From Pedobacter roseus (GTDB lineage Bacteria > Bacteroidota > Bacteroidia > Sphingobacteriales > Sphingobacteriaceae), in assembly GCF_014395225.1 (NCBI RefSeq), contig NZ_CP060723.1, forward strand, positions 1,922,001 through 1,986,000: 64,000 bases of DNA, given 5' to 3'. The position numbers and the translations under genes are program-made. Below are positions 7,801 to 51,930 of the stretch, piece by piece. Numbering within the stretch: the stretch's first letter is position 1; every line of letters begins with the position of its first letter. A model generated the notes under the pieces. It saw only the letters and a list, made by a program, of their open reading frames with translations. It had not been told where the DNA came from and searched no databases.

Positions 7801-7818
7801 GTGGGTATTATCGGTTGA

Positions 7819-8433: not shown

Positions 8434-8479
8434 ATTTTGTTTTGATTAAGCCGGTCTGTAATCTGTTTTAAGTTTAATC

Positions 8480-9202
8480 TTATTGAAAAGTGGTCTTCAG
8501 ATTGCTCATCCCCCCATCAACGGGAATAACCTGACCGGTTATCCAGCTGCTATCTGCCGACAATAAAAATCCGATAGCTGCACTGATATCCTTTGCTGCC
8601 CCATACCTTCCTAAAGGATGCCTTTTCGCGGAAGCCTCCATTTTTTCCGGGCTGTTAAGGAGTTTGGAGGCCAATGGTGTATCTGTTAGCGAAGGTGCAA
8701 CCACATTAACCCTGATCTGGCTTGCAGATAACTCAGCCGCGAGGGAGATGGCCAGCCCTTCTATTGCAGCCTTTGATGCCGCGATACTGGAATGAAAACC
8801 CATTCCTGTTTGGGCTGCCACCGAACTGATCAGTACGATGGATGCCGAACCACTGTTTTTTAGTGGTTTTAGTGCCTGCTGTATTGATGAGGCTGCCCCA
8901 ACCACATTAAGCCTGAAATCATTTATAAAGTCGCTCTCGGTTATTCTGTTAAAAGGTTTAAGGTTGATGTTTCCTACGCAGTATACCAATCCATGAAGTA
9001 CTTCAGGCAAAAAGGAAGACAGTGGTTCCATGTCGTGCAGTACATCAAGCTCAGCATAAGAAACCGATTCAGGCCAGCTGGCAGAGCGATTTCTGGAAGC
9101 GGCGAAAACATGGGCACCTTCGCTGCTCAACAAATGGACCAGCTCAAGCCCTATACCTGAACTTGCACCTATTATCAGGATGTTTTTATGATGAAATTTC
9201 AT
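8480..9202 (-). CDS. Short-chain dehydrogenase/reductase family protein lacking catalytic Tyr
   Basis: Rossmann-fold NAD(P)-binding protein of the SDR family, about 240 residues. The start is taken at ATG 9202 (MKFHHKN); the upstream in-frame alternative is TTG at 9220. Cofactor motif GASSGIG is at the N-terminus, the NAG-equivalent region reads YCVGNIN, and the active-site Ser is in LISSVAAQTG. However the usual YxxxK motif reads I-A-A-S-K: the catalytic tyrosine is an isoleucine. A normal SDR oxidoreductase reaction is therefore doubtful; it may be a redox-inactive NAD(P) sensor or use another base. First gene of the light/repair operon, so it carries the operon's promoter region in front of it. 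Confidence 0.88.
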   Translation of the reverse strand: MKFHHKNILIIGASSGIGLELVHLLSSEGAHVFAASRNRSASWPESVSYAELDVLHDMEPLSSFLPEVLHGLVYCVGNINLKPFNRITESDFINDFRLNVVGAASSIQQALKPLKNSGSASIVLISSVAAQTGMGFHSSIAASKAAIEGLAISLAAELSASQIRVNVVAPSLTDTPLASKLLNSPEKMEASAKRHPLGRYGAAKDISAAIGFLLSADSSWITGQVIPVDGGMSNLKTTFQ

Positions 9203-9698: not shown

Positions 9699-11360
9699 AT
9701 GCAAAGTAAAAACAAATTCCGGCTACTTACTATCGGCCTTATATTTTTGGTTACACTATCATCATTCACATTGATTGGCGGGCATCACGATATTGAGCCT
9801 AAAGAAGGCCGGAAGATTGTGAACATTGTAAATTTTATCAGGCTTCTTGAGCCCAGAGATGCCCGGATTACCCAGGATGTACTTTATCAGACAGTTGTAA
9901 GCCAGGTAGAAATCATGAAAAAATATAGGCTGCCTGGTACTTTTCTGCTTCAATATGATGCCCTGATGGATCCGCGATATCAAAAACTCTTATCCACGCT
10001 TCCCAAAGGGTCATTCGAAATTGGTGCATGGTGGGAACTTCCGCAACCGCTTATTGAAAAGGCAGGTATAAAATGGCGGGGAAAATATTCATGGGACTGG
10101 CATTCTGACGTTGGTTTCTCCGTAGGATACAGCCCTGCAGAACGCGAAAAAATTATCGATGTCTATTTTGCAGATTTTAAAAAGATATTTGGGTACTATC
10201 CCAAATCTGTTGCTTCGTGGGTTATCGATGCGCATTCGCTAAATTATATGTACGATAAGTATAAGATTGTGGCATCGGCAAATTGTAAGGACCAGGTGGG
10301 CACAGATGGATTTACACTTTGGGGCGGATACTGGAACCAGGCCTATTATCCAAGCCGTGTTAATGCATATATGCCTGCACAACATGCCGAAAAGCAGCTT
10401 CCGGTTCCGGTTTTTAGATTGCTTGGAAGCGACCCGATCAGGCAGTACGCTGATGGGAGTACCGTAACAACCCTCGAACCCGTGTATAGCCATGCAGGTG
10501 GTAATCTCCAATGGATCAACTGGTTTTTTCAGACTTTTTCTAACGACCCGTCGCTTGGCTTTAATTACACGCAGGCAGGTCAGGAAAATTCGTTTACCTG
10601 GGATGCCATGAAAAAAGGACTTGAAATACAAATGCCGATCATTGCGCAGCTTAAGGAACAGGGCAAGGTAAAGGTAGAAACCATGGCCCAGTCTGGGCAG
10701 TGGTTTAAAAAAACATATAAGGTAACGCCGGCAACAACTTTTACGGTAACCAAAGATTTAGGTAATAGCGATAAGAAAACGATATGGTACAATAGCCGTT
10801 TTTACAGAATCAATCTGCTATGGGAAAACAGCAGCCTGCGCATCACTGATATTCATTTATTTAATGAGACTGTTCCGGATAAATACCTCAATGCGGTAAC
10901 TACAACCAATCAAAGCTTTTTCTACACCCTGCCTGTTGTAGATGGTTTTTTATGGGGCAAGGCAGGTAACCCGGCAGGGCTTATGTTTATGTACAATGCC
11001 GCGGGGCAGGAGCAAGCCATAAAAGGCGGTAATCCAATATTTACAAATCCGGGAAAGAGTACCGCACATATTTCGTGGCCTGTTCAAAACGGGAGCTTTG
11101 AGATTGATCTTAAAGAAAAGTCTGTCGTGGTGAAGTTTAAAGGTAAATCCCTCACTAGCTGGTTTCTCGATTTCAATGCAACAAATCGAAATGATTTACC
11201 GATTACCGGTATTCAAACAGACCACACGGACTATCTCTTCGAAAATCATCCCTATCAACTGAAGGCCATAAAAGGCAGCTTTGAAAAACCATCAAATGGT
11301 AGTGTTTTTCGTATAAAGCCGCAGGCTGATGCGCTAATGCTTAAAATGACGGATCAGTAG
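9699..11360 (+). CDS. Large secreted protein, possibly DUF3863/DUF3864-type
   Basis: Exported protein of 553 residues with an N-terminal signal peptide (MQSKNKFRLLTIGLIFLVTLSSF). The N-terminal half has a polysaccharide-deacetylase/GH-like barrel feel: IVNFIRLLEP, the YRLPGTFLLQYDALMD strand-helix, GSFEIGAWWELPQ, and WVIDAHSLNYMYDKY, followed by a region rich in Trp and Tyr. The C-terminal half (from about 350) is beta-rich and resembles a carbohydrate-active accessory domain. I associate this layout with the Bacteroidota DUF3863/DUF3864 pair, but that is from memory. It stands alone on the plus strand after the divergent region. Substrate not known; a role on glycans is inference. Confidence 0.65.
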   Translation: MQSKNKFRLLTIGLIFLVTLSSFTLIGGHHDIEPKEGRKIVNIVNFIRLLEPRDARITQDVLYQTVVSQVEIMKKYRLPGTFLLQYDALMDPRYQKLLSTLPKGSFEIGAWWELPQPLIEKAGIKWRGKYSWDWHSDVGFSVGYSPAEREKIIDVYFADFKKIFGYYPKSVASWVIDAHSLNYMYDKYKIVASANCKDQVGTDGFTLWGGYWNQAYYPSRVNAYMPAQHAEKQLPVPVFRLLGSDPIRQYADGSTVTTLEPVYSHAGGNLQWINWFFQTFSNDPSLGFNYTQAGQENSFTWDAMKKGLEIQMPIIAQLKEQGKVKVETMAQSGQWFKKTYKVTPATTFTVTKDLGNSDKKTIWYNSRFYRINLLWENSSLRITDIHLFNETVPDKYLNAVTTTNQSFFYTLPVVDGFLWGKAGNPAGLMFMYNAAGQEQAIKGGNPIFTNPGKSTAHISWPVQNGSFEIDLKEKSVVVKFKGKSLTSWFLDFNATNRNDLPITGIQTDHTDYLFENHPYQLKAIKGSFEKPSNGSVFRIKPQADALMLKMTDQ

Positions 11361-11475
11361 TATTTCCATGCGATGGATAAAACGAAATTAATTTTTCCTC
11401 ATATCAGATCCTGTTGATAAACATTTTCCTTCTAATTTGGTTTTAATCCCTGGCAGGGCAACCACTGCCAGTAAT

Positions 11476-12702
11476 ATGGAAAATCCGACACCTTCAAAGG
11501 CCAGGAGCCTGAACTGCCTAAACTGGCTTAATTTTTCTGCAGCTGACGTAGCCACAGGTCTAGGTCCTTTTTTGGCCGTGTATCTTGCGTCGAACTTAAA
11601 ATGGGATCCTTCCGAAATAGGCATAGCCATTGGGGCAATGAGCCTCGCTACCGTCATCGCACAATCGCCTGCCGGCTGGTTTTGCGATGTGAGTGATAAG
11701 AAAAGACTAGGGATTGTGATCGTTACCCTTACCATCTGTATCGCCGGGTTTTGTATGCTTTTTTTTCCGGCATTCTACGCGGTAATCGGTTGTCAGATAG
11801 CAATCGGGGTAGCAGCGGCATTCTTTGGACCTGTACTGATTTCTCTGGCCATGGGAATAGGCGGTGCAGACAGGTTTGACCATACCATTAGCCGTAACCA
11901 AACCTTTAACCATGCAGGCAATGTAGCCTCTGCAGTCATCATCGGACTGCTGGGCAAGTTTACCCACAATGAGGGGATTTTTTACGGACTTGCCATCTTT
12001 TGTGCAATGAGCATTATTTTTACCCTGGGGATAAGAGAAAATGATATTTCGCACCAGAGCAGCGAGCCGGTGGCAGGGAAGAAAAGCGGAAAGACCGGAA
12101 TGCTGGATATGCTGAAAAATAAGGGGTATTTGATTTTGCTATTTTCTGCTATACTATTCCACTTTGCCAATGCAGCGATGCTTCCGCTGGTTGGTCAGGA
12201 ATTAGGCAGGGACGAGGGGAGCAATGCTTCGCTCTACATGTCTGCCTGTATTGTGCTTGCACAGGCTGTTATGATACCGATAGCCTTTATGAGTGGCAAG
12301 TGGGCCAAAAAAGGGCGGAGAAAACTGATGATTTTAGCCTTCGTGATGTTACCCATCAGGGGAGTGCTTTATACCCTCTACAAAGGTGCTCCGTACCTGG
12401 TGAGTATACAGGTGCTCGATGGGATTGCAGGCGGGATCTTTAGCGTGGTATCCATACTAATGGTTGCCGATCTTTTCAGAGGTTCGGGTAAAGATAATTT
12501 TGCGCAGGGCATCCTGGCAACTTCAGTTGGTATCGGTGCCTCACTGAGCAATGTAGTTAGCGGGTATATCGTATCACATGCTGGTTTTAATTATGGCATG
12601 TTTATCCTCTCGGCCATTGCGTTTGCAGCCTTTATTATCTTCTACTTCATGATGCCAGAAACCATAAATGTTCCTGCCCGAAGGTTGGACATAGCAGAAT
12701 AG
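11476..12702 (+). CDS. Major facilitator superfamily transporter
   Basis: Inner-membrane secondary transporter of about 408 residues with roughly 12 hydrophobic segments. The start is taken at ATG 11476 (MENPTPSKARSLN); the upstream in-frame start is a TTG at 11437 with a poor leader. MFS signatures: GWFCDVSDKKRLGIV between segments 2 and 3 (the Asp-Arg/Lys loop) and MSGKWAKKGRRKLM in the matching loop of the second half. The LNFSAADVATGLGPFLAVYL N-terminal helix resembles drug/proton antiporters. It precedes the ArsB-like gene by 90 bases. Substrate cannot be read. Confidence 0.87.
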   Translation: MENPTPSKARSLNCLNWLNFSAADVATGLGPFLAVYLASNLKWDPSEIGIAIGAMSLATVIAQSPAGWFCDVSDKKRLGIVIVTLTICIAGFCMLFFPAFYAVIGCQIAIGVAAAFFGPVLISLAMGIGGADRFDHTISRNQTFNHAGNVASAVIIGLLGKFTHNEGIFYGLAIFCAMSIIFTLGIRENDISHQSSEPVAGKKSGKTGMLDMLKNKGYLILLFSAILFHFANAAMLPLVGQELGRDEGSNASLYMSACIVLAQAVMIPIAFMSGKWAKKGRRKLMILAFVMLPIRGVLYTLYKGAPYLVSIQVLDGIAGGIFSVVSILMVADLFRGSGKDNFAQGILATSVGIGASLSNVVSGYIVSHAGFNYGMFILSAIAFAAFIIFYFMMPETINVPARRLDIAE

Positions 12703-12791
12703 TGAAGCCCCCCGTGGCTTTCTTATCCTAAAGCTTTAAAAAAAATGACCGTTCCAAAATATTCTTATCTTTCCTTAAATATTATAATATA

Positions 12792-14036
12792 ATGACTTCA
12801 ACCCTTATCCTGCTTATTTCGCTGCTTGCCATAGCAGGGGTAATCGTCAGGCCATTTGGAATTCCCGAATATATCTCTGCCTGTGCCGGGGCGGCCATAT
12901 TGCTACTCTCAGGGCTGCTAAAATTTTCAGAGGGGATTTCCGGTTTTAGCAAAGGGATAGATGTATATTTTTTTCTGACCGGAATGATGATGCTGGCAGA
13001 AACGGCGAGGATTGAGGGGATGTTCGACTGGCTTGCGGCCCATGCAGCAAGGCTGGCAAAAGGGTCTTCCACCAGGCTTTTCTTTCTTATTTATCTGGTG
13101 GGCACGCTCGTAACGATTTTCCTATCCAATGATGCAACTGCTGTGGTACTCACCCCGGCGGTAATCGCAGCAGTGAGGGCCAGTAAAGTGAAAAATCCAT
13201 TGCCCTACCTTTTCATCTGCGCTTTTATTGCCAATGCAGCCTCATTTGTGCTACCCATTTCAAATCCTGCAAATCTGGTTATCTATGGTTCCCATCTTCC
13301 CGATCTTAGAGGATGGCTTTCAAGCTTTTTAATTCCATCCATTGTTTCCATCATCGCAACTTTTATTGTTCTTTATTTTCTTCAGCGTAAAGCATTGAGA
13401 GAGTCGCTCAGCACCGATATAAACATCCCAATATTATCTGGCGGTGGAAAAGCTGCCATCGGCGGGATATTTTTATCTGCGGTAATTTTGACCGTTTCCT
13501 CAGCCTGGGGCATTTCACTGGGGCTGCCCACTTTTATCTCTGGCATGGTAACCGTTATGATTGTATGCATTGGAACGCGGAGGATTCCTTTAACTATTGC
13601 CAAAGGGGTATCCTGGAATGTGTTGCCATTGGTGGCTGGTTTGTTCATCATCGTAGAAGCCTTCGGAAAGACAGGCCTTACACGATCTGTATCTGAGTTA
13701 CTTACTTCTTATGCACAGGGCAATGTTGCCGGCGCGGCATGGGGAAGCGGCATCATAACCGCAGTAGTATGTAACCTGATGAATAACCTGCCTGCAGGAC
13801 TAACCGCGTCCAGTATCGTACATAGCTCAGCTCCCCCTGAAATCATCAGACGCGCTATTCTTATTGGTATTGACCTTGGACCCAACCTTTCGCTAACTGG
13901 CTCTCTCGCTTCCATACTTTGGCTGGTCGCCCTTCGCCGGGAGAACCTGAGTGTTAATGGCTGGAGCTTTTTAAAGCTGGGGGCCATTGTGATGACAGTT
14001 CCATTATTGCTCGTTCTGGCTTCGCTTTTCATATAG
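12792..14036 (+). CDS. arsB: ArsB/ion-transporter superfamily permease
   Basis: Inner-membrane anion carrier of the arsenite/antimonite efflux ArsB group within the ion-transporter superfamily, 414 residues and about 11-12 hydrophobic segments. Typical features are the conserved SNDATAVVLTPAV motif, the NPANLVIYG motif in the first half and the mirrored NLMNNLPAGL and GPNLSLTGSLASILW motifs in the second half. There is no arsR, arsC, arsA or acr3 gene beside it, so arsenite as substrate is likely from family membership but not supported by context. The preceding MFS gene is on the same strand and may be co-transcribed. Confidence 0.8.
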   Translation: MTSTLILLISLLAIAGVIVRPFGIPEYISACAGAAILLLSGLLKFSEGISGFSKGIDVYFFLTGMMMLAETARIEGMFDWLAAHAARLAKGSSTRLFFLIYLVGTLVTIFLSNDATAVVLTPAVIAAVRASKVKNPLPYLFICAFIANAASFVLPISNPANLVIYGSHLPDLRGWLSSFLIPSIVSIIATFIVLYFLQRKALRESLSTDINIPILSGGGKAAIGGIFLSAVILTVSSAWGISLGLPTFISGMVTVMIVCIGTRRIPLTIAKGVSWNVLPLVAGLFIIVEAFGKTGLTRSVSELLTSYAQGNVAGAAWGSGIITAVVCNLMNNLPAGLTASSIVHSSAPPEIIRRAILIGIDLGPNLSLTGSLASILWLVALRRENLSVNGWSFLKLGAIVMTVPLLLVLASLFI

Positions 14037-41716: not shown

Positions 41717-41922
41717 TTTAAATCATTAGCTTCTTTCTGTTTCTTTTGCTGATATTTGATATAACGAGAAATTATGGTGTGGGCAGGCACTATTTTAATA
41801 TCAACCAAACAATAACATTTTAAAAAACAAAGTAATAGCTGTAATACTGGCCTGATTACTCAATGCAAACTGATCCTGTTATTTTAAACCTATTTTCAGA
41901 CCCTATAACTGCCAAATTATTT

Positions 41923-43503
41923 ATGATTCAATCAAACATTAAGTCTCCCGGTGTTTACATCAATGAGCAAAATGCTTTTCCCAATTCGGTGGTGCCCGTG
42001 GCTACTGCTGTGCCGGCATTTATAGGTTATACCCCCCAGGCCGAATATAATGGTAAATCTTATATTAATCTGGCGCAAAAAATCACCTCTTTTGCTGATT
42101 TTCAGGCTATATATTGCTATTCCAATCAGGCTCCGCCAGCAAGTCACGCGGTACAGTACAGTCCGGAATATTATTTGGTTGAGCAAAAAAGCAAACCGGA
42201 AAATAATGAATACATGGTCATAAATGATTTGTACTATGCTATTTTGCCCGATCCCAAGACCATTTATTACCTGTACAACAGTATCAAGCTGTTTTATCAG
42301 AATGGTGGCAGCAATGCTTACATCGTATCAGTAGGTACTTACGGACCACCATCTGCACAGCCAATGGGTATAGGCAAACAGATTGTTAACCCGAATGTAT
42401 CACTGGCTGCTTTAACAGGAGGGCTTCAGCTTTTACTCAATGAGCAAGAGCCTACCATGTATATTTGTCCCGAAGCTACATTATTATCGGTAGCAGATAA
42501 TGGAACGCTCATGCAGGATATGCTTGCACAATGCGAAGCTATGCAAACCGCAATTTGTATATTTGATATCATTGGCGGCCGTAACCCCGATCCTTTAAAT
42601 TATACAGCTGATATTGAAGCTTTCAGAAACAATACAGGCCAGCAGGGCCTGAACTATGGCACGGCTTATTATCCGTTTATCGGTACTTCCATCATGGGGA
42701 TTAACGATATCAATTATACCAATCTTTTTGGTGGCGATGTGAAGCAGTTAGCACCTTTACTCAATCCGCCATCAAATCCTAACCCAATTGCTGCTACCAT
42801 TCTTCATAACATCGAAAGTCCTCCGGGAGCACCACTAACGGCAAGTCAATATCACAATGCCCTGATCAATGCCAGCGAGCTATATACAGCCATCATTAAA
42901 AACGTATTGGCACTGGCCAACATTCTGCCAGCAAGCGCAGGTATGGCAGGGGTAATGACTACCATTGATAATCTGGAAGGCGTATGGGAGGCTCCGGCAA
43001 ATACTTCTATCGTTGGTGCAGTATCATTACCCATCAACCTATCAGAAAGTCAGCAGGGTAGCCTTAATGTCGATTCTGTTTCAGGTAAATCGATCAACGC
43101 CATCCGCTTTTTTAATGGCCTTGGTATTTTGGTTTGGGGTGCCAGAACACTCGATGGCAATAGCCAGGATTGGCGGTACATTTCGGTAAGAAGGACCATG
43201 ATCATGATTGAACAATCGTGTAAACTGGCAGCACAAGCCTATGTTTTCCAACCCAACACAAAAAATACCTGGGAGGCAGTGAAGGCGATGATCGGTAGTT
43301 TTCTAACCAGCCTCTGGAAAGAAGGTGGTTTAATGGGCGCTACCGCTGCAGATGCTTTTTCAGTAGACTGCGGTTTGGGCACAACCATGACCGCTGACGA
43401 TATTTTAAACGGATTTATGAAGATAGCCGTTAGAGTAGCCCTTGTACATCCTGCAGAGTTCATTGTAATAACTTTCCAACAGGAAATGACAGTTTCTGGT
43501 TAA
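41923..43503 (+). CDS. Contractile phage-tail-like sheath protein
   Basis: Sheath subunit of a contractile injection system (CIS), 526 residues. The start is taken at ATG 41923 (MIQSNIKSPGVYINEQNAFP) because sheath proteins of this family begin with a short (K/S)PGVY(I/V)xE leader; an in-frame ATG at 41863 would add 20 residues. Markers: SPGVYINEQNAFPNSVVPV, ATAVPAFIGYTP, and the C-terminal NAIRFFNGLGILVWGARTLDGNSQDWRYISVRR in outline. Homologous to gp18/Pvc2-type sheath proteins, not the TssB/TssC pair. First gene of a nine-gene cluster. Only one sheath gene is present, whereas typical eCIS loci carry two or more. Confidence 0.93.
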   Translation: MIQSNIKSPGVYINEQNAFPNSVVPVATAVPAFIGYTPQAEYNGKSYINLAQKITSFADFQAIYCYSNQAPPASHAVQYSPEYYLVEQKSKPENNEYMVINDLYYAILPDPKTIYYLYNSIKLFYQNGGSNAYIVSVGTYGPPSAQPMGIGKQIVNPNVSLAALTGGLQLLLNEQEPTMYICPEATLLSVADNGTLMQDMLAQCEAMQTAICIFDIIGGRNPDPLNYTADIEAFRNNTGQQGLNYGTAYYPFIGTSIMGINDINYTNLFGGDVKQLAPLLNPPSNPNPIAATILHNIESPPGAPLTASQYHNALINASELYTAIIKNVLALANILPASAGMAGVMTTIDNLEGVWEAPANTSIVGAVSLPINLSESQQGSLNVDSVSGKSINAIRFFNGLGILVWGARTLDGNSQDWRYISVRRTMIMIEQSCKLAAQAYVFQPNTKNTWEAVKAMIGSFLTSLWKEGGLMGATAADAFSVDCGLGTTMTADDILNGFMKIAVRVALVHPAEFIVITFQQEMTVSG

Positions 43504-43531
43504 CAGATTTATCAATAATAAAAACAATATT

Positions 43532-43996
43532 ATGGCTGATGATGGAAGCGCACAAGGCGCAACGTGGCCCATGCCCAAATTTAGATTTGAAGTGGACCTT
43601 GGAACAGAATTAAAAGGCGTCGCATTTCAGGAAGTATCCGGATTGGATGTCGAAAACCAGGTAATCAAGTACCGCAAAAGCAACAGTCCGCTTTTTTCTA
43701 CAGAGAAAATGCCCGGTTTGGTAAAATATGGTAACGTAACCATGAAACGCGGGATTTTTGTGAATGATAATACCTTCTGGGATTGGCATGCAGAGATTAA
43801 AATGAACCTGATTAAAAGAAGAACAGTGCTGATTAAACTTCTTGATGAGGCGGGCAACATTACCATGCAATGGCAATTGGATAACGCCTGGCCAACCAAA
43901 ATCAGCAGTACCGATTTAAAATCAGAAGGAAATGAAGTAGCCATCGATACATTGGAAATTGCTCATGAACAATTGACCATTACAAATGGCAGATAA
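43532..43996 (+). CDS. Contractile tail tube protein
   Basis: Tube subunit (gp19/Pvc1-type, Hcp-like fold) of the CIS, 154 residues. It matches the family: WPMPKFRFEVDLGTELKGVAFQEVSGLDVE, IKYRKSNSPLF, KMPGLVKYGNVTMKRGIF and a C-terminal WQLDNAWPTKISSTDLKSEGNEVAIDTLEIAHEQL (each shown in part). Stop is 55 bases before the VgrG start. It would stack as a hexameric tube inside the sheath. Only one tube gene is found; usual eCIS loci carry two. Confidence 0.93.
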   Translation: MADDGSAQGATWPMPKFRFEVDLGTELKGVAFQEVSGLDVENQVIKYRKSNSPLFSTEKMPGLVKYGNVTMKRGIFVNDNTFWDWHAEIKMNLIKRRTVLIKLLDEAGNITMQWQLDNAWPTKISSTDLKSEGNEVAIDTLEIAHEQLTITNGR

Positions 43997-44051
43997 CAGC
44001 TACCCGTTAGAACAGCGAAAATAACACTTCTAACCTTTTTGATTAATCATT

Positions 44052-45905
44052 ATGCCTGTAGAAATAAGAGAACTCGATATTAAAACAAAAATAGACCAAA
44101 ATATAATGGCCTCATCAACAGATATCCCAAGCGGTGGTTTAGCCACTTATACCATTAAAGTTGCAGGTAGTAACATACTTGATGAAATAAGAGTGCTTTC
44201 AGTGCGGGTAGAAAAACGGGTAAACCATGTTTCAACGGCAAAAATTGTAATTGTTGATGGTGAAGCAAATTCCGGAACATTCCAGGCCAGCTCTTCATCC
44301 ACATTCGTACCTGGCAACCTGATCAGTATTGAGGCAGGTTACGATGGAACCAACACCGTAATCTTTAAAGGCATTATTACGGGCCAGTCAATCCGTATTG
44401 ATAGTAGAGTAGGTTCAACCCTTGAAGTAGAATGCTGGGATGAGGCCGTAAGAATGACGGTAGGCAGAAAGAGTTTGACCTTTGCCGGGAAAAAAGACAG
44501 TGAAGTAATTGCTGCTATTATTGGTAGTTATCCTTCGCTTACAGCCGATGTAAGCGGAACTGCAACAGTTTGGCCAGAACAGGTACAATATTATGTAAGT
44601 GATTGGGATTTTATACTTTCGTTGGCAGAAAAGAACGGGCTTTTGGTAACCACCCTTAACGGAACTGTTGCAGTAAAAGAACCGGGTGCCAATTCTAGCC
44701 CGGTATTGAGCATAAGTTATGGCAATAATTTGCTGGAATTTAGGGCAAATATGAACGCGCTTAGTCAACTGGAAAGTGTGAGAGCCAGTACCTGGGATTA
44801 TAAACAACAAGCCATAGCCAGCGCAGATGCACTACATACTTATGCCGGACCAGGCAATATCTCTTCAAAAACATTAGCAGAAGTTGTGGGGCTGCCGGAA
44901 TACAATTTGCAGACCACAGCACCAATGGAAACTGCTGAACTGAGCAACTGGGCCAAGGCACAGATGTTAAAGAGTGAGTATGCAAAAATAACCGGCGAGG
45001 CAAAGTTTCAGGGGAACAGTTTGGCTGATCCTGGTAAGTTTATCAATTTAAATGGTATTGGGGATAGGTTTAACGGCGATTACTTCATTTCTGGTCTTGT
45101 TCATAACCTTTCTGAAGGGAACTGGCTAACTGAAGTTTCATTAGGGCTTTCTCCTCAGTGGTTTATTGAACAGCCTGATATAGTAGCGCCTACAGCCTCG
45201 GGCATGTTGCCAGGCGTACGTGGTTTATTTAACGGTACTGTTAAAAAAATGTATGATGATCCTGATTCGCAATACCGGATTTTGGTCGATGTGCCTCTAT
45301 TTGATCAAAGTGGACAGGGTATATGGGCAAGATTGGCCAATTTTTACTCCAGCAGTGGCGCAGGTGCCTTTTTTCTTCCCGAAGTAGGAGATGAAGTGGT
45401 GCTTGGCTTTTTAAATGAAGATCCGCGCAGTCCGGTGATATTGGGGAGCATGTATAGCAGTCCAAAGCTAAGACCTTACGAAGGCTTTAACCCGAACGAA
45501 AAAAACGCCATAAAGGCAATTGTTTCCAAATCAAAAATCAACATCGAATTCGACGATGAAAATAAGGTGCTCACTTTGGCCACGCCTGATAAGAATACCA
45601 TAATTTTTAGCGATAAGGATAAAAAAATCACCATTCAGGACGAACACAACAACAGCATTGTAATGTCTGCGGATGGGATTACGATCAAAAGTGCTACCGA
45701 TGTCAATATCCAGGCAAATCAGAAAGTAAACATTACAGGTAATCAGGGAATAGACATAAAGGCGCCTACAGGAGATGTTGACTTAAGTGGTATGAACATC
45801 AGCCATGTAGCCGACAATGAGTTTTCGGCAAAAGGATCAATGACCGCAGAAATAAAAAGTGGGGCGCAACTGAGCCTGAAGAGCGCCATGATTATGATTA
45901 ATTAA
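44052..45905 (+). CDS. VgrG-type spike protein
   Basis: Spike of the CIS, 617 residues. The first 350 residues are the gp27-like hub; the following VPLFDQSGQGIWARLANFYSSSGAGAFFLPEVGDEVVLGF stretch (in part) is the gp5/OB-fold, and NEDPRSPVILGSMY is the conserved ending of it. The C-terminal 120 residues have short VNIQANQKVNITGNQGIDIKAPTGD-type repeats of a triple beta-helix needle. Two bases after the stop begins the segment leading to the PAAR gene. No toxin extension is attached, so an effector must be separate. Confidence 0.93.
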   Translation: MPVEIRELDIKTKIDQNIMASSTDIPSGGLATYTIKVAGSNILDEIRVLSVRVEKRVNHVSTAKIVIVDGEANSGTFQASSSSTFVPGNLISIEAGYDGTNTVIFKGIITGQSIRIDSRVGSTLEVECWDEAVRMTVGRKSLTFAGKKDSEVIAAIIGSYPSLTADVSGTATVWPEQVQYYVSDWDFILSLAEKNGLLVTTLNGTVAVKEPGANSSPVLSISYGNNLLEFRANMNALSQLESVRASTWDYKQQAIASADALHTYAGPGNISSKTLAEVVGLPEYNLQTTAPMETAELSNWAKAQMLKSEYAKITGEAKFQGNSLADPGKFINLNGIGDRFNGDYFISGLVHNLSEGNWLTEVSLGLSPQWFIEQPDIVAPTASGMLPGVRGLFNGTVKKMYDDPDSQYRILVDVPLFDQSGQGIWARLANFYSSSGAGAFFLPEVGDEVVLGFLNEDPRSPVILGSMYSSPKLRPYEGFNPNEKNAIKAIVSKSKINIEFDDENKVLTLATPDKNTIIFSDKDKKITIQDEHNNSIVMSADGITIKSATDVNIQANQKVNITGNQGIDIKAPTGDVDLSGMNISHVADNEFSAKGSMTAEIKSGAQLSLKSAMIMIN

Positions 45906-45924
45906 TTATTAAACAGAAGAAAAT

Positions 45925-46224
45925 ATGCCACCAGCAGCAAGATTAACTGATTTTCACGAATGTCCAATGCAAACACCCGGAGTTCCACCTATACCTCATG
46001 TTGGCGGACCAATTGCTGGGCCTGGCGAGCCTACCGTACTGATAGCTGGCTTGCCGGCTGCTAGAGTGGGCGACATGCTCGTTTGTGTTGGTCCTCCCGA
46101 TAGCATTGTAAAAGGTTCGGCAACCGTTAAAATCGGTGGAATGCCGGCCGCCCGATTGGGTGATGCAACCGCGCACGGAGGCACAATTACGCTCGGCGCA
46201 TTTAATGTCATGATTGGAGGTTAG
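45925..46224 (+). CDS. PAAR-domain spike-tip protein
   Basis: 99-residue PAAR protein that caps the VgrG needle. The motif set is intact: PPAARLTD at the start, AGLPAARVGDMLVC in the middle and GGMPAARLGDATAHGG near the end, with conserved His and Cys probably binding zinc. It is a minimal PAAR with no fused effector domain. It starts 20 bases after VgrG and overlaps the next gene. Confidence 0.95.
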   Translation: MPPAARLTDFHECPMQTPGVPPIPHVGGPIAGPGEPTVLIAGLPAARVGDMLVCVGPPDSIVKGSATVKIGGMPAARLGDATAHGGTITLGAFNVMIGG

Positions 46225-46825
46225 GTCATTAACAATCAAAATAGAAATTATTGACTCCGTAATAAATACCAATGTGACCTTTAGACCCATTATGACAGCA
46301 GAAAAAAATGACATTTTAAAAGCGGAAATTAGCGTAAGAAATGCCGGTCTGGTTTTAATTAACGCTTATATTTCCATTCTTTTTGAGCGCCTTGGACTTA
46401 CTCACAACCATAAGTTCAGTAGCGCTGAAAGCCAGCTTGAAGCAGTGCACTATCTGCAATATATTGTAACCGGACAAGAACAAACCGAAGAGTCATTTTT
46501 ACCACTCAATAAATTATTATGCGGAATACCGCTGGCTGAGACGGTAATGGAGGGTATTAATATTTCAGCACAAAATCGCCAATTGATAGAAGGATTAATA
46601 AAGGCTGCGATCGGTTATTGGCCAGCCATTGGCAGTTCTTCTATAGATGGTTTTAGAGGGAATTGGCTGGTAAGGGATGGCCTGCTTACTGAGAAACATG
46701 ATAGGTGGGAATTAACCGTAGAAAAACACCCTTATGATCTTTTGATCCACAGATCTCCTTTTTCATTTTCAATTATCAAACACCCATGGATGGATAAGCT
46801 CCTCCATGTAAACTGGCCATATTAG
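46214..46825 (+). CDS. Contractile injection system tape-measure-type domain protein (short)
   Basis: Related to the CIS tape measure family (CIS_TMP domain). The conserved core is clear: NAGLVLINAYISILFERLGL, the AVHYLQYIVTGQEQTEES segment, LNKLLCGIPL, and IKHPWMDKLLHVNWPY at the end (shown in part). The protein is only about 200 residues, while tape measure proteins of complete CIS are much longer, so it may be just the terminal domain working as an adaptor. The start is a TTG at 46214 overlapping the PAAR gene by 11 bases, with GGAGG at that place; the first ATG is at 46292 and would still keep the conserved core. Role in length control is therefore doubtful. Confidence 0.75.
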   Translation: MEVRSLTIKIEIIDSVINTNVTFRPIMTAEKNDILKAEISVRNAGLVLINAYISILFERLGLTHNHKFSSAESQLEAVHYLQYIVTGQEQTEESFLPLNKLLCGIPLAETVMEGINISAQNRQLIEGLIKAAIGYWPAIGSSSIDGFRGNWLVRDGLLTEKHDRWELTVEKHPYDLLIHRSPFSFSIIKHPWMDKLLHVNWPY

Positions 46826-46929
46826 TATTGAAAGCATAAAAACGGTAAATGCTAGCGAAATATCTTAGTACTTATGTTTTTGAAGATGTGTAGTACCTTA
46901 AATTAATTTAACGAATTAAGATAAAAATT

Positions 46930-48723
46930 ATGAACGCTTACAACGAAAATCTTCGATCAGCTACCGTAAACACTTTACAGGGTTTAGATCTTGAAGAAAA
47001 GCGACTTAAATCGCAGGTAAATGCGGCCATGTTTAACCTTTACTACGCCGAGGGAGCTACCATTACGGCAGAACAGAATCTTGTAGCAGCAACGAACATT
47101 TATAAAACAAAAGTTATAACGCAGCGTGAGGCAGAAAAGGATAGTAATGTTTTGGTAAACCTTGTAGGCGCTGCCACACAGGCCAACCAATACGTTAACG
47201 AATCAACAAGCAGTGTAGCTGTTTCTGCAACCAACGTAAAGGTGGCAACCAATGCAATTGTTCGTTTAGCTGGTGATGTGGATAGCATTTATAACATTTT
47301 ACATGCCGAAGATTTTGTTAGCAATATTTACACATTGGCAAAAGAAGCGAGAGAACTGCTGAATGAAACCGCTTGCGATGCTGAAGTAAGCGCACAACTG
47401 GCCATGGAAGCTTCTATCTTAACAGCCGAAGTATCCGCGTCAGCCGTGCTCGATATGGCCAAAACGACCAGTGATTTAATGAATTCCATTTTAGAAATTA
47501 CAACAGCAGATTTTAATGCGGCTAACCAGGCACTGATAACGCATAATAATGCAATGGTCGCGGTACAATCGACAGAAAAACTGAATGAAGGCGCGCTGCA
47601 AATGGTCAGTACCTCCTACAGTGCAACTAAATCGGCTTATGCACTTGCCGATGCTAAACTCAATCTTAACCTGAATGTAAAAACCAGCGAAACTGATCCA
47701 TTGAGTTTCTCGGTGAATTTTGACCTGATTCAAAGTCCATTTCCCGGTGAAAAACCAAACGATCATCCCATGTACCCTGTAGAAAAATACTACATCATGG
47801 TGGTTAAAGAACAGAACAAACAAACCTTTTCGATCACTAATGCAGAAAATATCCTGTTATCGGGCAAAAGTAACTTCATTGCTGTAATGCCGCCTAAAGC
47901 TTCAACAGCACAGCAAGAGATAAAAGTGTACAATTATGCTGCGGATAAAAATGCAGCTTTGGTAACCGATTCAGATCAGGAGCCAATTGAACCTGGTAAA
48001 AATTATGTGGTGTTTGTAATGGGTGTTTTTACCGACGATTACAAAAGAAAAATCAATTTTTACGATGATTATTTATCGGCGCCATCGCAGGTATTTATCC
48101 TAATAGCCAAACTGCAACAAGTGGCTGGAAAATCAATTAAGCTTACACATTATAAAGAAAAAGACCTTTCTGATGAAGAACGCAGTTTAGCAGAAAATAT
48201 TAAAAAAGAATACTTAAAAAGTATTAATGGTTTAATTGATGATCCTTTTTTATTTGAATTCGAGCATGTTATGAGTTTTGAAAGTAATGAGCCTGCAGCT
48301 GTTGAAGTTGAATACCGTTGTCTGTTTTTGCCTGTCAGTGCGAATGCTTCAGATCGTTTGCCTAATATCGAACCGCCTCATTTTCTCATCGAAAATGAAA
48401 TTGGCAGTTTAGAAGCAATACCGTCATTGTCCAGGTTAGATAAGGCCAAACCTGGTTTTTTGTTTAATGTGCCTATAGCCGAACAGGTTTCTACAGGCAA
48501 TTATACTGTTGCCCATAAGAAAAAAGATGCTGCGGCTAATGGGGCAACACAATGGATTGCTTTTATTAATCCGGATAGCACAGATAACTTTGGAAATAAG
48601 CTTATTAAAGGGGAACAGTATCTTCCGGTAGTGCTTTCTTATTCAACAGTTGCAAAAGAAAATGATATGTGTTTTTTGAATGCCCTGTCAGAAATGTCCG
48701 AAACAGATTATTTTCATTATTAA
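46930..48723 (+). CDS. Unknown protein with helical N-half and beta-rich C-half
   Basis: Unrecognised 597-residue protein in the contractile cluster, after a 105-base gap. Residues about 1-245 are Ala/Thr/Ser/Asn-rich and helical with heptad-like spacing (EEKRLKSQVNAAMFNLYYAEGA; TACDAEVSAQLAMEASI), while about 250-597 alternate in a beta manner (LNLNLNVKTSE, SVNFDLIQSP, YYIMVVKEQ, YVVFVMGVF). No signal peptide or transmembrane segment. The two-part layout suits a structural rod with a globular domain or a tail-loaded effector with a helical cargo region. The neighbour at 48748 has a similar helical segment, so the two may be related. Function unknown. Confidence 0.6.
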   Translation: MNAYNENLRSATVNTLQGLDLEEKRLKSQVNAAMFNLYYAEGATITAEQNLVAATNIYKTKVITQREAEKDSNVLVNLVGAATQANQYVNESTSSVAVSATNVKVATNAIVRLAGDVDSIYNILHAEDFVSNIYTLAKEARELLNETACDAEVSAQLAMEASILTAEVSASAVLDMAKTTSDLMNSILEITTADFNAANQALITHNNAMVAVQSTEKLNEGALQMVSTSYSATKSAYALADAKLNLNLNVKTSETDPLSFSVNFDLIQSPFPGEKPNDHPMYPVEKYYIMVVKEQNKQTFSITNAENILLSGKSNFIAVMPPKASTAQQEIKVYNYAADKNAALVTDSDQEPIEPGKNYVVFVMGVFTDDYKRKINFYDDYLSAPSQVFILIAKLQQVAGKSIKLTHYKEKDLSDEERSLAENIKKEYLKSINGLIDDPFLFEFEHVMSFESNEPAAVEVEYRCLFLPVSANASDRLPNIEPPHFLIENEIGSLEAIPSLSRLDKAKPGFLFNVPIAEQVSTGNYTVAHKKKDAAANGATQWIAFINPDSTDNFGNKLIKGEQYLPVVLSYSTVAKENDMCFLNALSEMSETDYFHY

Positions 48724-48747
48724 CGGATCGCTAAATCATATCACATT

Positions 48748-49584
48748 ATGAAAACTCAAAAATCAACAAAAGATATATCCGTACCTGTTGCCCACCGCGT
48801 TAAAAAATATGGTGTTACTGAACATAAAAAGAATGAACTTGATGCATTAGCCATCCAGGTAATGGATGCGCAGGGTGAAGTAGAGAAATATCAGTCTGTT
48901 GTTAGCGCGTTAACCACGAAATCAAATAATTTACAGAGTTTTTTAGCTATTGCAAGCAGTAATAAAACGCAGGCTTATAACAACAAAATACTGATTGATC
49001 AACTGGTGCAGCGTGGTGCCGAGCTGGAAAGCAACTCCAATATTGCTTTTAACGAAATGCTTAAAGCCAGTTCACAAACTAAAAAACTTGCCGCAGAGAT
49101 AAACATGGTGATGGGGAAACTGATTTACTGTGCTGAAATGGTTAATAAACTCGCCAACCTGATTGTAAGGCAAAAAGCGCTGAACCCATTAATTTCCGAT
49201 GACCTGGTTAATATGATCAATATAGCTGGTACGGATGCCAGTAATGCTGTGGCTTTAACGCTGGTGGCCCTGCAAAGTACTTTTGCCGCACAAGCTTCAG
49301 AAATGGAAGCAGAAAAGGCAATTGGCTTGGAGTACATGCAAGCTATCGCCTTAAAAAAACTGCTTACCGGATCGGGTGATGATAGCCATTCAGCTTCCCT
49401 TCAGCAACTTTTTTACCAGGCCTCCGCAACTGCAAAAGTGAATTATACTTTGGCAGATAAAGCTAATTCCGCTACGCTTACACAATTGAATATGGCAAAT
49501 GCAAACCTCAATACCGCACAGCTTAAACTTAAATCGCTTCAATCGGGTTTGGCGGCAGCCAATGCAGCGGCTTTAGCTTCTTAA
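48748..49584 (+). CDS. Unknown Ala-rich helical protein
   Basis: Unrecognised 278-residue protein made almost entirely of predicted helix: Ala, Leu, Asn and Lys rich, ending in NAAALAS. No signal peptide or membrane segment. A layout of long helices without beta content, with a central hydrophobic-looking core (LIYCAEMVNKLANLIVRQ), matches the N-terminal half of the 597-residue neighbour in length and composition (both about 220-280 residues, with NMV/NLI and ASNAVAL-type repeats). They may be paralogous rods or cargo-loading partners. Sits 24 bases after the previous gene in the cluster. Confidence 0.6.
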   Translation: MKTQKSTKDISVPVAHRVKKYGVTEHKKNELDALAIQVMDAQGEVEKYQSVVSALTTKSNNLQSFLAIASSNKTQAYNNKILIDQLVQRGAELESNSNIAFNEMLKASSQTKKLAAEINMVMGKLIYCAEMVNKLANLIVRQKALNPLISDDLVNMINIAGTDASNAVALTLVALQSTFAAQASEMEAEKAIGLEYMQAIALKKLLTGSGDDSHSASLQQLFYQASATAKVNYTLADKANSATLTQLNMANANLNTAQLKLKSLQSGLAAANAAALAS

Positions 49585-49645
49585 TTAAATGATCATCCGC
49601 TATTTTTTTGAACAGTGGATTAAATAAATATATTGTCAATCTGAT

Positions 49646-50566
49646 ATGGGAAATGTATACAGAAATTTTTACCGGAACTTTTACATGCGCACAAATGGCT
49701 TTATACCTGTGTCGCCATTAGGAAAAACGGTTTATCCAGGTGATTTTTTCCAGATCCGGAACGGTCAGATGATCGCACTCGGAAATATTTTCCGCAATGG
49801 GTTGATAGAACCGCAAGAGGTAGCGCTAGCGAATCACAATAAACTAAATCCAGAGGGTTGGAGCTTTAGTGATGGCGTATCTAAACCTTATGCAGGCAGG
49901 GGAAATGGAAATGACCCGCTGAAAGGAGAATTTGAGTTTAGTAAACAGATCCTTGCCTTTGCCGAAAGAGGGAATTTTATTTTCAAGGCCAGCGACCCTG
50001 AATCAATCAGGATACTCAATTGGAGCGACATTCAGCAGACATTGATCATCAGGCTTACTCAAACCCATTATTCTTTCAGGGAAGTTTATGTGGTTACCGA
50101 AAGTGCTGCTGCAGCCGATTGGACCTTGGCCGTTTCGGGCGGAAATATGGCAGAACTGGAAATTGTAACAGATCAGGAAAATTTTGGGCTGGTTGATATT
50201 TTCGGTCATCATTCCTCAAAAACCATCCAATCAAAAGACATTGAATTTTATCATCGGGAAGAAAAACGGAAATCCTCTTTTTATAAAGCGAAAAAGCTGG
50301 TGGTGCGGGAAGAAAAAACCGAAACTTTAGCAGCTAACTTCATTGCGCAATGGGAGGGGCATAATGAATGGGCACAGGGTTTTTACGAACAGGATTTTCA
50401 TTTCGATTATCAATATGTCAATAACATGGGAACCCATTCGCAGGATAACTTACTCGATCTTCTTCCTCCAAACGAACTTAATCCCAGCACAGCACTGCTT
50501 TATTTTAAATGGGCAGATACCAGTTTGGATGATGTAGAAAAATTATTGATTAATTATGGAGAATAA
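49646..50566 (+). CDS. Unknown protein with gasdermin-N-like features
   Basis: 306-residue protein of the contractile cluster with no signal peptide. Residues 1-200 recall the gasdermin pore-forming domain by eye: a short amphipathic start (NVYRNFYRNF), FIPVSPL near residue 19 (compare FIPVTSL in human gasdermin D), LGNIFRNGLIEPQ where gasdermins have a DILEP-like turn, an acidic/Gly linker, then REVYVVTES near residue 145-155 (compare NVYVVTEV), then KTIQSKDIEFYH and KKLVV as the end strands. The C-terminal 85 residues are acidic with Trp/Tyr. No palmitoylation Cys near the N-terminus and no protease gene beside it, unlike known bacterial gasdermins. The similarity is from memory and unproven. 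Its stop overlaps the ATPase start by 11 bases. Confidence 0.45.
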   Translation: MGNVYRNFYRNFYMRTNGFIPVSPLGKTVYPGDFFQIRNGQMIALGNIFRNGLIEPQEVALANHNKLNPEGWSFSDGVSKPYAGRGNGNDPLKGEFEFSKQILAFAERGNFIFKASDPESIRILNWSDIQQTLIIRLTQTHYSFREVYVVTESAAAADWTLAVSGGNMAELEIVTDQENFGLVDIFGHHSSKTIQSKDIEFYHREEKRKSSFYKAKKLVVREEKTETLAANFIAQWEGHNEWAQGFYEQDFHFDYQYVNNMGTHSQDNLLDLLPPNELNPSTALLYFKWADTSLDDVEKLLINYGE

Positions 50567-51899
50567 TACCGCATTAACAGCCTTAAGGCAGGAACTGGAT
50601 TGGTTAGAAGCCGCAATCAGGCAATGTATGGTCACCTATTTTGTGCAGGAAGGGCATGAAAAAGACTGGACTGAAATTTCAATACCAGATCTTTCCCTCA
50701 GCGGCAGTCCTTATGCGGATTTTATTAAAAAATGGAACCTGGATGTTTATGCAAGGTTGGCCATTGCACTTGCTATGGCACCACACCTCCGTCCTGAAAT
50801 ACTGGATGTTTTTTTAAGCAAAAACCAAGTGTACGATCGTGGTTTTACTGAGTTTGGGGGTGTGTCCGGTAAAGATCATAACGGCTTTTTACCAACAGGC
50901 GAAACCTTATGTTTTCTGCTTACCGTAAACCGTCCCGAAATGCGTTACCAGGTAATGTACCTGCTCGGAAAGGAGCATGTTCTCTATAAAGAAGATGTGC
51001 TTAATCTTGCCGAAACAGAAAGTCATCTGCCCTTATTAAGCGGTCAATTGAGTTTAAACAAAAGTTGGTTTAATTATTTCCTCACCGGGAAAAAACTGAT
51101 AGCCGAAAACAGTGCTTCTTTCCCTGCCCAAAAAATCAGTACGGCGATGGATTGGGATGATGTAGTGCTCGATCATTTGGTGCTAACGCAGATTAATGAA
51201 ATTACTACCTGGTTAGCGCATGGCCATACCCTGATGGAAGATTGGGGATTGGCCAGGAAACTGAAACCGGGCTACAGGGCATTATTTTATGGACCTCCAG
51301 GAACAGGAAAAACCTTAATCACTACTTTGATCGGTAAATCAAGTGGCCATGAAGTCTATAGAATCGATCTTTCTATGGTTGTTTCCAAATATATCGGCGA
51401 AACGGAAAAGAACCTGTCTGAAATTTTTGATATGGCCCAGCATCAAAACTGGATTTTGTTTTTTGATGAAGCCGATGCATTGTTCGGAAAACGTAGCAAT
51501 GTCGATTCTGCCAATGATCGGTATGCCAATCAGCACACTGCTTATCTTTTACAGCGGATCGAAGATTTTCCAGGGCTGGTTATCCTGACAAGCAACCTCA
51601 AAGCCAATATAGATGAGGCTTTTTTAAGAAAGTTTCAATCCATTATTCATTTTACTATGCCTGCTGTACAAGAACGCTATCAGCTTTGGCAACAAGCCTT
51701 TTCAGGGGTTTGTAAACTGGATGAAAATATTAATCTTAAAGCCATTGCAGAGGAATACGAACTCACTGGTGGATCAATCATTAACGTATTGCGTTATTGC
51801 GCTTTATTGGTGATTAGCCGAAACGATACCATAGTAACCGAACAAGAATTAATTGCAGGCATAAAACGGGAACTTCAGAAAGAAAATAAACCTAAGTAA
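50556..51899 (+). CDS. CIS-associated AAA+ ATPase
   Basis: AAA+ ATPase of the kind found at the end of CIS loci (Pvc15-like), 447 residues, shorter than the usual 600-700. The AAA core at about residues 215-400 has Walker A GPPGTGKT, Walker B ILFFDEADALFGKRS, a sensor-1 region LTSNLKANIDEAF and arginine finger LRKFQ. The first 200 residues are helical with a conserved ALAMAPHLRPEILDVF type motif. Start is nested in the preceding stop. The family is thought to help assemble or load the particle; the exact action is unknown. Confidence 0.92.
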   Translation: MENNTALTALRQELDWLEAAIRQCMVTYFVQEGHEKDWTEISIPDLSLSGSPYADFIKKWNLDVYARLAIALAMAPHLRPEILDVFLSKNQVYDRGFTEFGGVSGKDHNGFLPTGETLCFLLTVNRPEMRYQVMYLLGKEHVLYKEDVLNLAETESHLPLLSGQLSLNKSWFNYFLTGKKLIAENSASFPAQKISTAMDWDDVVLDHLVLTQINEITTWLAHGHTLMEDWGLARKLKPGYRALFYGPPGTGKTLITTLIGKSSGHEVYRIDLSMVVSKYIGETEKNLSEIFDMAQHQNWILFFDEADALFGKRSNVDSANDRYANQHTAYLLQRIEDFPGLVILTSNLKANIDEAFLRKFQSIIHFTMPAVQERYQLWQQAFSGVCKLDENINLKAIAEEYELTGGSIINVLRYCALLVISRNDTIVTEQELIAGIKRELQKENKPK

Positions 51900-51930
51900 A
51901 TTACAAAGTAAAGCTATTTCCAGTAAGGCC

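What the first reader, a model, noticed from the sequence alone, without database searches (positions are those of the whole stretch)
41923..51899. Reduced contractile injection cluster without baseplate or terminator genes
Nine plus-strand genes: sheath, tube, VgrG, PAAR, short tape-measure domain protein, two helical unknowns, a gasdermin-like candidate and an AAA+ ATPase. Established: eCIS, PVC and MAC loci normally also carry gp25-like, wedge (gp6/gp7-like), LysM/gp53, a DUF4255-type terminator and several sheath/tube paralogues. None of these is present between 41.6 and 51.9 kb, and both flanks hold ordinary unrelated genes (beta-lactamase, esterase). This points to a minimal system of a new kind or to one that borrows baseplate parts from another locus.
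Basis: partly seen in the sequence, partly recalled or inferred. Interest (0 to 1): 0.85.

Follow-up and report, generated by a model that had tools for sequence, protein, structure and literature searches.

The report
Baseplate-free derivative of a bacterial syringe
A genome of the genus Pedobacter keeps the sheath, tube and spike genes of a toxin-injecting nanosyringe but lacks the baseplate genes that a complete copy carries at the same chromosomal spot in a close relative, and because baseplate-less sets with still-constrained genes recur in many related bacteria, these leftovers likely do something other than inject.

Summary
In detail: nine intact plus-strand genes with no gp25, wedge or cap gene beside them. 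It is not a primordial minimal system. P. jeongneungensis has a complete AlgoCIS-type extracellular contractile injection system (eCIS) at the same site with the same flanks; against it the window lacks six stretches (Pvc16-type cap and a 274-aa gene; second tube; DUF5908/CIS_tube, leaving an in-frame DUF5908-VgrG fusion; gp25, gp6, gp7 and most of the tape measure; part of the 597-aa gene; an eCIS_core gene). gp6 and Pvc16 are absent from the whole closed genome and its only gp25 is in a type VI locus. Baseplate-less loci recur: 19 of 29 family genomes with this sheath type, 10-11 state changes on a sheath tree (6-7 well supported), some reduced to a lone sheath. Reduced pairs still show purifying selection (sheath dN/dS mostly 0.05-0.15), weaker than in most complete pairs. 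So this is a recurrent, likely maintained baseplate-free derivative; slow decay is the main rival, since two window genes look near-neutral. The 306-aa protein has a predicted gasdermin fold and stands in 16 of 16 complete loci of the clade that could be checked; my searches found no paper on that.

The parts
41923..43503 (+). contractile sheath, 526 aa; the longer ORF from 41863 is not homologous upstream
   Evidence: PF17482 E=6.7e-13; 82-83% identical to the nearest complete-locus sheaths; 202 of 206 full-locus invariant sites kept
43532..43996 (+). inner tube protein 1, 154 aa
   Evidence: PF06841 E=1.3e-42; 95% identical to G145 tube1
44052..45905 (+). VgrG spike, 617 aa, with the start of a DUF5908 protein fused in frame
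   Evidence: junction at 44087-44097
45925..46224 (+). PAAR spike tip, 99 aa
   Evidence: PF05488 E=5.2e-24; 88% identical to G145
46292..46825 (+). C-terminal domain of the tape-measure protein (about 178 aa; frame open from 46214, GTG at 46274)
   Evidence: PF19268 positions 286-463; aligns to residues 758-937 of the 937-aa G145 protein; fold model with mean pLDDT 90
46930..48723 (+). 597-aa protein of unknown function, counterpart of a 690-aa protein
48748..49584 (+). 278-aa protein of unknown function
   Evidence: window-branch dN/dS not distinguishable from neutral
49646..50566 (+). 306-aa protein with predicted gasdermin fold; overlaps the start of the ATPase ORF
50556..51899 (+). AAA+ ATPase, 447 aa, Walker A and B motifs present
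   Evidence: PF00004 E=3.2e-27; motifs
41844..41913 (.). junction 1: about 2.5 kb of the complete locus missing, including the Pvc16-type cap, a 274-aa gene and most of a 315-aa ORF
   Evidence: window/G145 alignment; ORFs; Pfam of lost genes
44011..44023 (.). junction 2: second tube gene missing
   Evidence: PF06841 in the lost gene
44087..44097 (.). junction 3: rest of DUF5908 and the CIS_tube gene missing, in-frame fusion
   Evidence: PF19266 in the lost gene
46224..46280 (.). junction 4: about 8.75 kb missing (gp25, gp6, gp7, N-terminal about 755 residues of the tape measure)
   Evidence: lost proteins match gp25, Alg11-like and Alg12/Pvc12-like chains
48385..48444 (.). junction 5: the 597-aa gene is 93 codons shorter here than in G145
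51891..51930 (.). junction 6: about 0.97 kb missing, holding an eCIS_core gene

Best explanation
The locus differs by six missing stretches from a complete AlgoCIS-type eCIS that sits between the same flanking genes in P. jeongneungensis, and what is left (sheath, tube, VgrG-PAAR spike, tape-measure C-terminus, predicted gasdermin-fold protein, AAA+ ATPase) is likely a maintained, non-injecting module rather than a working syringe. Shown: synteny, the missing stretches, open frames, no gp6 or Pvc16 anywhere in the genome, baseplate-less loci in many relatives, and purifying selection between reduced relatives. Inferred: the stretches were deleted on this lineage. Inferred from reported PVC deletion phenotypes: without baseplate, second tube and sheath initiator no normal particle should form. 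Predicted: the sheath can still polymerise, because most sites conserved in complete loci are kept even in lone-sheath lineages; tube and sheath would at most assemble on the VgrG-PAAR-tape-measure hub inside the cell, without ruler, cap or receptor-triggered firing. Untested: the gasdermin-fold protein would be a membrane pore former that kills or lyses a cell, handled by the AAA+ ATPase encoded next to it.
For: Same-site complete locus with collinear flanks. No gp6 match in 18 of 25 reduced or lone-gene genomes, no Pvc16 in 14 of 21, both lists including this genome; its only gp25 is in a type VI locus with TssC and TssD. 19 of 29 family genomes with this sheath type are baseplate-less at the locus, the other 10 have wedge genes. 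Sheath tree of 57 rows (29 full, 26 reduced, 2 cut): 10-11 full/reduced changes, 6-7 forced by starred branches; tape-measure tree of 37 rows: 11 changes, 3 forced, one origin in 0% of 200 bootstrap trees. dN/dS between reduced relatives with measurable dS: sheath 0.052-0.148, tube 0.10-0.21, VgrG 0.16-0.21, PAAR 0.05-0.11, short tape measure 0.15-0.25. 29 reduced sheaths keep 91-100% of 206 sites invariant in complete loci. Window branch: sheath 0.15, tube 0.093, VgrG 0.125, PAAR 0.075, tape-measure domain 0.078, ATPase 0.12; no stop where a partly neutral branch predicts about 21. In 5 of 10 family genomes that keep both, sheath and short tape-measure gene are on different contigs or 1.9 Mb apart.
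Against: Constraint in the window is relaxed (sheath 0.15 vs 0.036, tube 0.093 vs 0.014), and the 278-aa and gasdermin-fold genes cannot be told from neutral (p=0.17 and 0.32). With the other placement of the window, which fits sheath, tube and PAAR better under one ratio, the sheath branch estimate was 2.7 and tube reached 7.4, the bound. Decay does occur in relatives: broken sheath in G279 (its pair with G432 gives 0.22), broken short tape-measure gene in L136 and tube remnant in L141, scraps in G284. Reduced sheaths lose more invariant sites (0-9%) than complete ones left out one at a time (0-3.3%), most at residues 281-320 and the last 7. No shared new partner gene was found. No expression or microscopy data.
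Confidence: 0.55

Rival explanations
1. A decaying eCIS relic: baseplate loss ended its function, and the remaining genes are drifting and have not yet acquired stops.
For: Raised dN/dS on the window branch, near neutral for the 278-aa and 306-aa genes; broken pieces in several relatives; G284 looks like a fresh, separate reduction.
Against: No stop in nine ORFs against about 21 expected if the excess came from neutral drift (model estimate); PAAR and the tape-measure domain show no relaxation; several reduced lineages stay constrained over dS up to about 1.4.
Confidence: 0.33
2. Incomplete but working injector that uses baseplate parts of the resident type VI system in trans.
For: The genome has a type VI locus with gp25, TssC, TssD, VgrG.
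Against: G215 and G194 keep sheath, tube, VgrG and PAAR without any gp25 match in the genome; lone sheaths have no tube beside them. Cross-assembly of the two types is not known to me (recalled).
Confidence: 0.04
3. A complete system whose baseplate genes are elsewhere and too divergent to detect.
For: Some relatives keep parts unlinked: short tape measure in G215, G194, G209, G273, G279; VgrG about 36 kb from the sheath in G048; tube on another contig than the sheath in G279.
Against: Complete sister loci have easily recognised wedge genes, and gp6, gp25 and Pvc16 were sought genome-wide, with complete-locus genomes in the same searches all found. gp7 was not searched genome-wide.
Confidence: 0.06
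4. Assembly or sequencing artefact that dropped the middle of the locus.
For: Only one genome with this exact structure was examined at DNA level.
Against: Closed single contig, 99.99% complete; six separate junctions with every remaining frame open; a 96-97% identical short tape-measure protein in another record, a cluster of 7 members on a 2136-base contig.
Confidence: 0.02

Closest known systems
AlgoCIS, Algoriphagus machipongonensis (PMC8894135, passages read)
   Same: Wedge proteins of the complete sister locus match AlgoCIS chains of 7aeb (E=1.7e-34 and 3.2e-37); the window sheath matches the AlgoCIS sheath (7adz/7aeb) at E=1e-76; cap of 189 aa like Alg16A (197 aa)
   Different: The window lacks cap, the 274-aa gene (cap adaptor by position only, not shown), wedge, gp25, second tube and most of the tape measure
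PVC and Afp eCIS
   Same: Homologous sheath and the same families of tube, VgrG, PAAR, tape measure and AAA+ ATPase
   Different: Single deletions of PVC baseplate, tube or initiator genes stop particle formation (stated in PMC12210884, passage read); the window lacks several such genes
eCIS of PDB 9r9h/9rce (holds a chain called SalCis12)
   Same: Best solved sheath match, E=2.5e-114
   Different: 9rce also contains baseplate chains
Bacterial gasdermins (8sl0, 7n51, 7n52)
   Same: Predicted fold of the 306-aa protein
   Different: No gasdermin match by sequence profile; no cysteine in the window protein, so no N-terminal lipidation of the kind I recall for bacterial gasdermins; no protease family among the nine genes
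Orphan hcp/vgrG/PAAR islands of type VI systems (PMC13098142, search listing and start of abstract seen)
   Same: Spike genes kept away from a full system
   Different: Described there as hcp, vgrG and/or PAAR; here a contractile sheath is kept

Membership tests
AlgoCIS-type eCIS | sheath, tube, VgrG, PAAR, AAA+ ATPase of the clade | tested here: met
AlgoCIS-type eCIS | baseplate wedge (gp25, gp6/Alg11, gp7/Alg12) | tested here: not met
   none in the locus; gp6 absent genome-wide; only a type VI gp25; gp7 not searched genome-wide
AlgoCIS-type eCIS | Pvc16-type cap | tested here: not met
   no Pvc16_N match in the genome
AlgoCIS-type eCIS | full-length tape measure | tested here: not met
   C-terminal domain only, frame of 203 codons, the one match in the genome
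AlgoCIS-type eCIS | assembled particle | not testable with these tools
   needs electron microscopy
Type VI secretion system | TssB/TssC sheath, TssJLM membrane complex, TssK | tested here: not met
   the sheath is of the phage/eCIS type and no Tss family other than VgrG/PAAR is among the nine; the type VI locus is elsewhere on the chromosome
Contractile phage or R-tailocin | capsid, terminase, portal or lysis genes nearby | tested here: not met
   none among the nine genes; the two nearest flanking genes are hydrolases and the flanks are shared with G145
Gasdermin (306-aa protein) | gasdermin fold | tested here: met
   on a predicted model only, pLDDT 70, TM-scores 0.34-0.43 to the best hit:
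Gasdermin (306-aa protein) | sequence-family match | tested here: not met
   no gasdermin match in Pfam or PADLOC for 36 members (best unrelated Pfam E=0.0016), none in the PDB with a profile
Gasdermin (306-aa protein) | membrane pore formation | not testable with these tools
   needs liposome or cell assays

The most novel reading that the evidence does not exclude
Bacteroidota repeatedly domesticate eCIS sheaths: after baseplate loss the sheath, often with the tape-measure C-terminal domain and sometimes tube, spike and a gasdermin-fold pore former, is kept as a baseplate-free polymer system with a function other than injection, a class that eCIS surveys filter out by design.
Probability: 0.35. 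Interest if true: 0.85.

Novelty: new variant of a known kind. Interest (0 to 1): 0.64.

Why it matters
If reduced loci are kept by selection, contractile sheaths have a job that needs no baseplate and no injection, which no model of these machines that I know of covers. [quoted passage not shown] The lone-sheath and sheath-tube lineages make 'what does a sheath do without a baseplate' directly testable. The gasdermin-fold protein in complete loci also offers a candidate for producer lysis or for a payload in this eCIS clade.

Tried and rejected
Ideas rejected. (1) Internal start producing the short tape-measure protein also in complete loci: of 11 long forms listed, four close kin (G145, G061, G303, G375) share an ATG there, but there is none at that place in G337, G336 or G353 and it lies at varying distances in others (not all long forms were caught by the pattern). 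(2) Conserved non-CIS partner genes: 45 reduced or lone-gene loci compared (two of them the same locus), no neighbour family in more than 5; most sharing is between close kin at one site, a few families recur in unrelated loci and I did not identify them. (3) Codon model with the window outside G337: sheath 2.7, tube at the bound. I judged the topology wrong because synonymous distances, synteny with G145 and the tape-measure tree (99/91) put the window next to G145 and kin, and reran it; sheath, tube and PAAR still prefer the first topology under one ratio. (4) Sequence matches to solved structures for the 597-aa protein, the 306-aa protein, the tape measure and the 274-aa gene: none meaningful. 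(5) The tape-measure domain model has no Foldseek match at E<=0.001 in the PDB. (6) Literature: searches showed me no paper on baseplate-less eCIS loci, solitary sheaths or an eCIS gasdermin. The library holds open-licence papers only; searches matched 463 and 183 papers of which 20 each were listed. Two listed papers hold both 'gasdermin' and 'contractile injection system' (PMC13222765, PMC12948488); I saw only listing and abstract start. A term search inside PMC13314943 found nothing.

Limits. gp7 was not searched genome-wide. No family-wide search for lone wedge or cap genes was made, so the retention of sheath and tape measure is partly ascertainment, since loci were found through them. 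'Reduced' means no gp25, gp6 or gp7 in the stretch held, about 10 kb each side or less: L141 ends 1.1 kb after the sheath, and the 40-kb Pedobacter stretches start about 5 kb before it. In G432 and G279 another, different CIS lies within about 12 kb of the sheath. Sheaths L151, L152 and L154 are distant (42-56% identity), so profiles could miss their neighbours. dN/dS could not be measured for saturated pairs: six sheath pairs and the tape-measure pairs G273/G386 and G159/G279.
Full report
Observation. Searches confirm nine intact + strand genes at 41923-51899: sheath, tube, VgrG, PAAR, a tape-measure fragment, two unknowns (597 and 278 aa), a 306-aa unknown and an AAA+ ATPase, between a metallo-beta-lactamase-fold gene and an esterase gene. 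No wedge, gp25, CIS_tube or Pvc16 gene is among them. The VgrG carries the start of a DUF5908 protein.

Origin. A search with the 597-aa protein found relatives in 11 of 301 family genomes, this one included. Several lie in complete eCIS loci. Against it the window lacks six stretches: Pvc16-type cap (PF14065) plus a 274-aa gene; the second tube; most of DUF5908 plus CIS_tube (PF19266), leaving an in-frame fusion; 8.75 kb from the end of PAAR into the tape measure (gp25, gp6, gp7, about 755 residues of the tape measure); 93 codons within the 597-aa gene; and an eCIS_core gene. gp6 and gp7 of G145 match AlgoCIS, Pvc11/Pvc12 and Afp11/Afp12 chains, so the complete form is AlgoCIS-like. That the stretches were lost rather than gained is inferred from the conserved order of complete loci across genera.

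No replacement found in the genome. G000 is a closed 6.33-Mb contig with one PF04984 sheath hit, at this locus. gp6 gave no match, while G145 and G297 were found in the same search, and Pvc16_N none. The single gp25 lies in a type VI locus with TssC, TssD, VgrG and a TssF-like gene. In the same searches gp6 was absent from 18 of 25 reduced or lone-gene genomes; the other 7 (G245, G209, G422, G408, G101, G436, G520) have distant copies (24-42% identity by piece) beside other CIS genes of a second, different locus. Pvc16_N was absent from 14 of 21. Five of 21 (G215, G194, G316, G386, G755) have no gp25 match.

Recurrence. Genus: 66 of 145 genomes match the sheath; 20 match at 69% identity or more, of which 7 are complete, 12 reduced and 1 cut by a contig end. 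Family: 136 of 399 match; 29 at 66% or more, of which 10 are complete and 19 reduced; in two of the 19, G432 and G279, a different CIS lies within about 12 kb. Named genome contigs: 44 loci, including lone sheaths in Flavobacterium, Echinicola, Mucilaginibacter and Tenacibaculum, where profiles built from complete loci found no other CIS gene in the stretch held, about 10 kb a side or less. Short tape-measure frames of this clade occur in 14 of 399 family genomes plus a fragment in G197, against 10 with a long form; three more short frames at 33-41% identity (G183, G236, G399) were not counted. In the large database 362 proteins of similar length match, the best 120 listed, many on short contigs where genes may be cut. 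In the 57-row sheath tree (29 full, 26 reduced, 2 cut) the state changes 11 times with the cut loci counted apart from reduced and 10 times with them unknown; starred branches force 6-7. In the 37-row tape-measure tree it changes 11 times, only 3 forced, but 0% of 200 bootstrap trees have one origin. The window is nested among complete loci in both. At the 26 reduced loci other genes persist as follows: tube1 12 (one a remnant), tape-measure domain 8 (two of them broken or partial), VgrG and PAAR 7, the 306-aa gene 4, the 274-aa gene 3, the 597- and 278-aa genes 3, tube2 2, cap 1, ATPase 1, wedge 0 by definition. Genome-wide, tube1 of this clade persists in 13 of 25 reduced or lone-gene genomes, VgrG in 8, gp6 of this clade in 0. 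Of 14 genomes with a short tape measure 10 also have the clade's sheath, against 9 of 375 others without a long form (Fisher p=4e-12; it assumes that searches drew the same 399 genomes, and related species are not independent); in 5 of the 10 the two are on different contigs or 1.9 Mb apart.

Selection. Reduced-reduced pairs: sheath dN/dS 0.078 (G194/G215), 0.148 (G209/G245), 0.107 (G194/G245), 0.126, 0.098, 0.081 and 0.107 (pairs among G331, G335, G197, G167), 0.052 and 0.107 (lone sheaths L148/L150, L148/L149), 0.106 and 0.123 (L132/L135, L132/L141). An exception towards decay is G432/G279 at 0.22, where G279 has a stop. Eight complete pairs range from 0.015 to 0.095. Six further sheath pairs were saturated. 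Twenty-nine reduced sheaths keep 91-100% of 206 sites that are invariant in 32 full or cut-but-likely-full rows; losses concentrate at residues 281-320 and the last 7, each with few such sites, while residues 1-40 and 441-520 keep 94-99% group by group. Complete rows left out one at a time lose 0-3.3%. For the window branch (window next to G145 and kin): sheath 0.152 (background 0.036), tube 0.093 (0.014), VgrG 0.125 (0.056), PAAR 0.075 (0.090), tape-measure domain 0.078 (0.121), ATPase 0.120 (0.077), 597-aa 0.171 (0.123), 306-aa 0.302 (0.054), 278-aa 0.473 (0.102). The last two are not distinguishable from 1. If the excess came from neutral drift for part of the branch, about 21 stops would be expected and none is seen (a model estimate with kappa set to 2). 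The branch also includes time before the losses, and under the other topology the sheath estimate was 2.7.

Reading. PVC baseplate, tube and initiator deletions abolish particles (PMC12210884, passage), so this locus should not make a normal syringe. The best reading is a baseplate-free derivative still under selection; decay is the main rival. Published surveys required at least ten core genes (PMC8213781, passage) or baseplate genes (PMC12210884, passage), so such loci would be filtered out. I found no paper describing them in the searches listed.

Noticed in passing
window 49646-50566; complete loci G145, G297, G336, G747 and others: A protein of about 306 aa with predicted gasdermin fold is a conserved member of complete AlgoCIS-type eCIS loci in Pedobacter, Mucilaginibacter and other Bacteroidota, directly before the AAA+ ATPase.
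   Followed up: partly
L091 (G159), L103 (G386), L106 (G755), L107 (G520): Lone tape-measure C-terminal domain genes (178-218 codon frames) with no other CIS gene found within about 10 kb.
   Followed up: partly
L148 and L150 at 10001-11581, L144, L124: Lone full-length eCIS sheath genes; L148/L150 dN/dS 0.052.
   Followed up: partly
L132, L135 (Dokdonia): Rearranged baseplate-less locus keeping the 274-aa gene, counterparts of the 597- and 278-aa genes, the gasdermin-fold gene, the sheath and one or two tubes; L132 also has a cap-like gene and a short tape measure, and both share further genes of 354 and 481 aa.
   Followed up: no
L024 at 10147-13175 (G034); L029 at 10115-12160 (G215): Relatives of the 597-aa gene away from other CIS genes, in G034 paired with the 278-aa gene near a contig end.
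   Followed up: no
L075 at 4836-9188 (G284): A separate, apparently fresh reduction: intact sheath, VgrG and PAAR with scraps of the 274-aa, CIS_tube and eCIS_core genes between and beside them.
   Followed up: partly
L032, L033 (G000 C1 about 5.59-5.61 Mb): A type VI locus (TssC, TssD, VgrG, gp25, TssF-like) in the same genome.
   Followed up: partly
L165 (G432), L170 (G279): A clade sheath (broken in G279) within about 12 kb of a second, different CIS; the two sheaths are 97% identical over the part compared.
   Followed up: no
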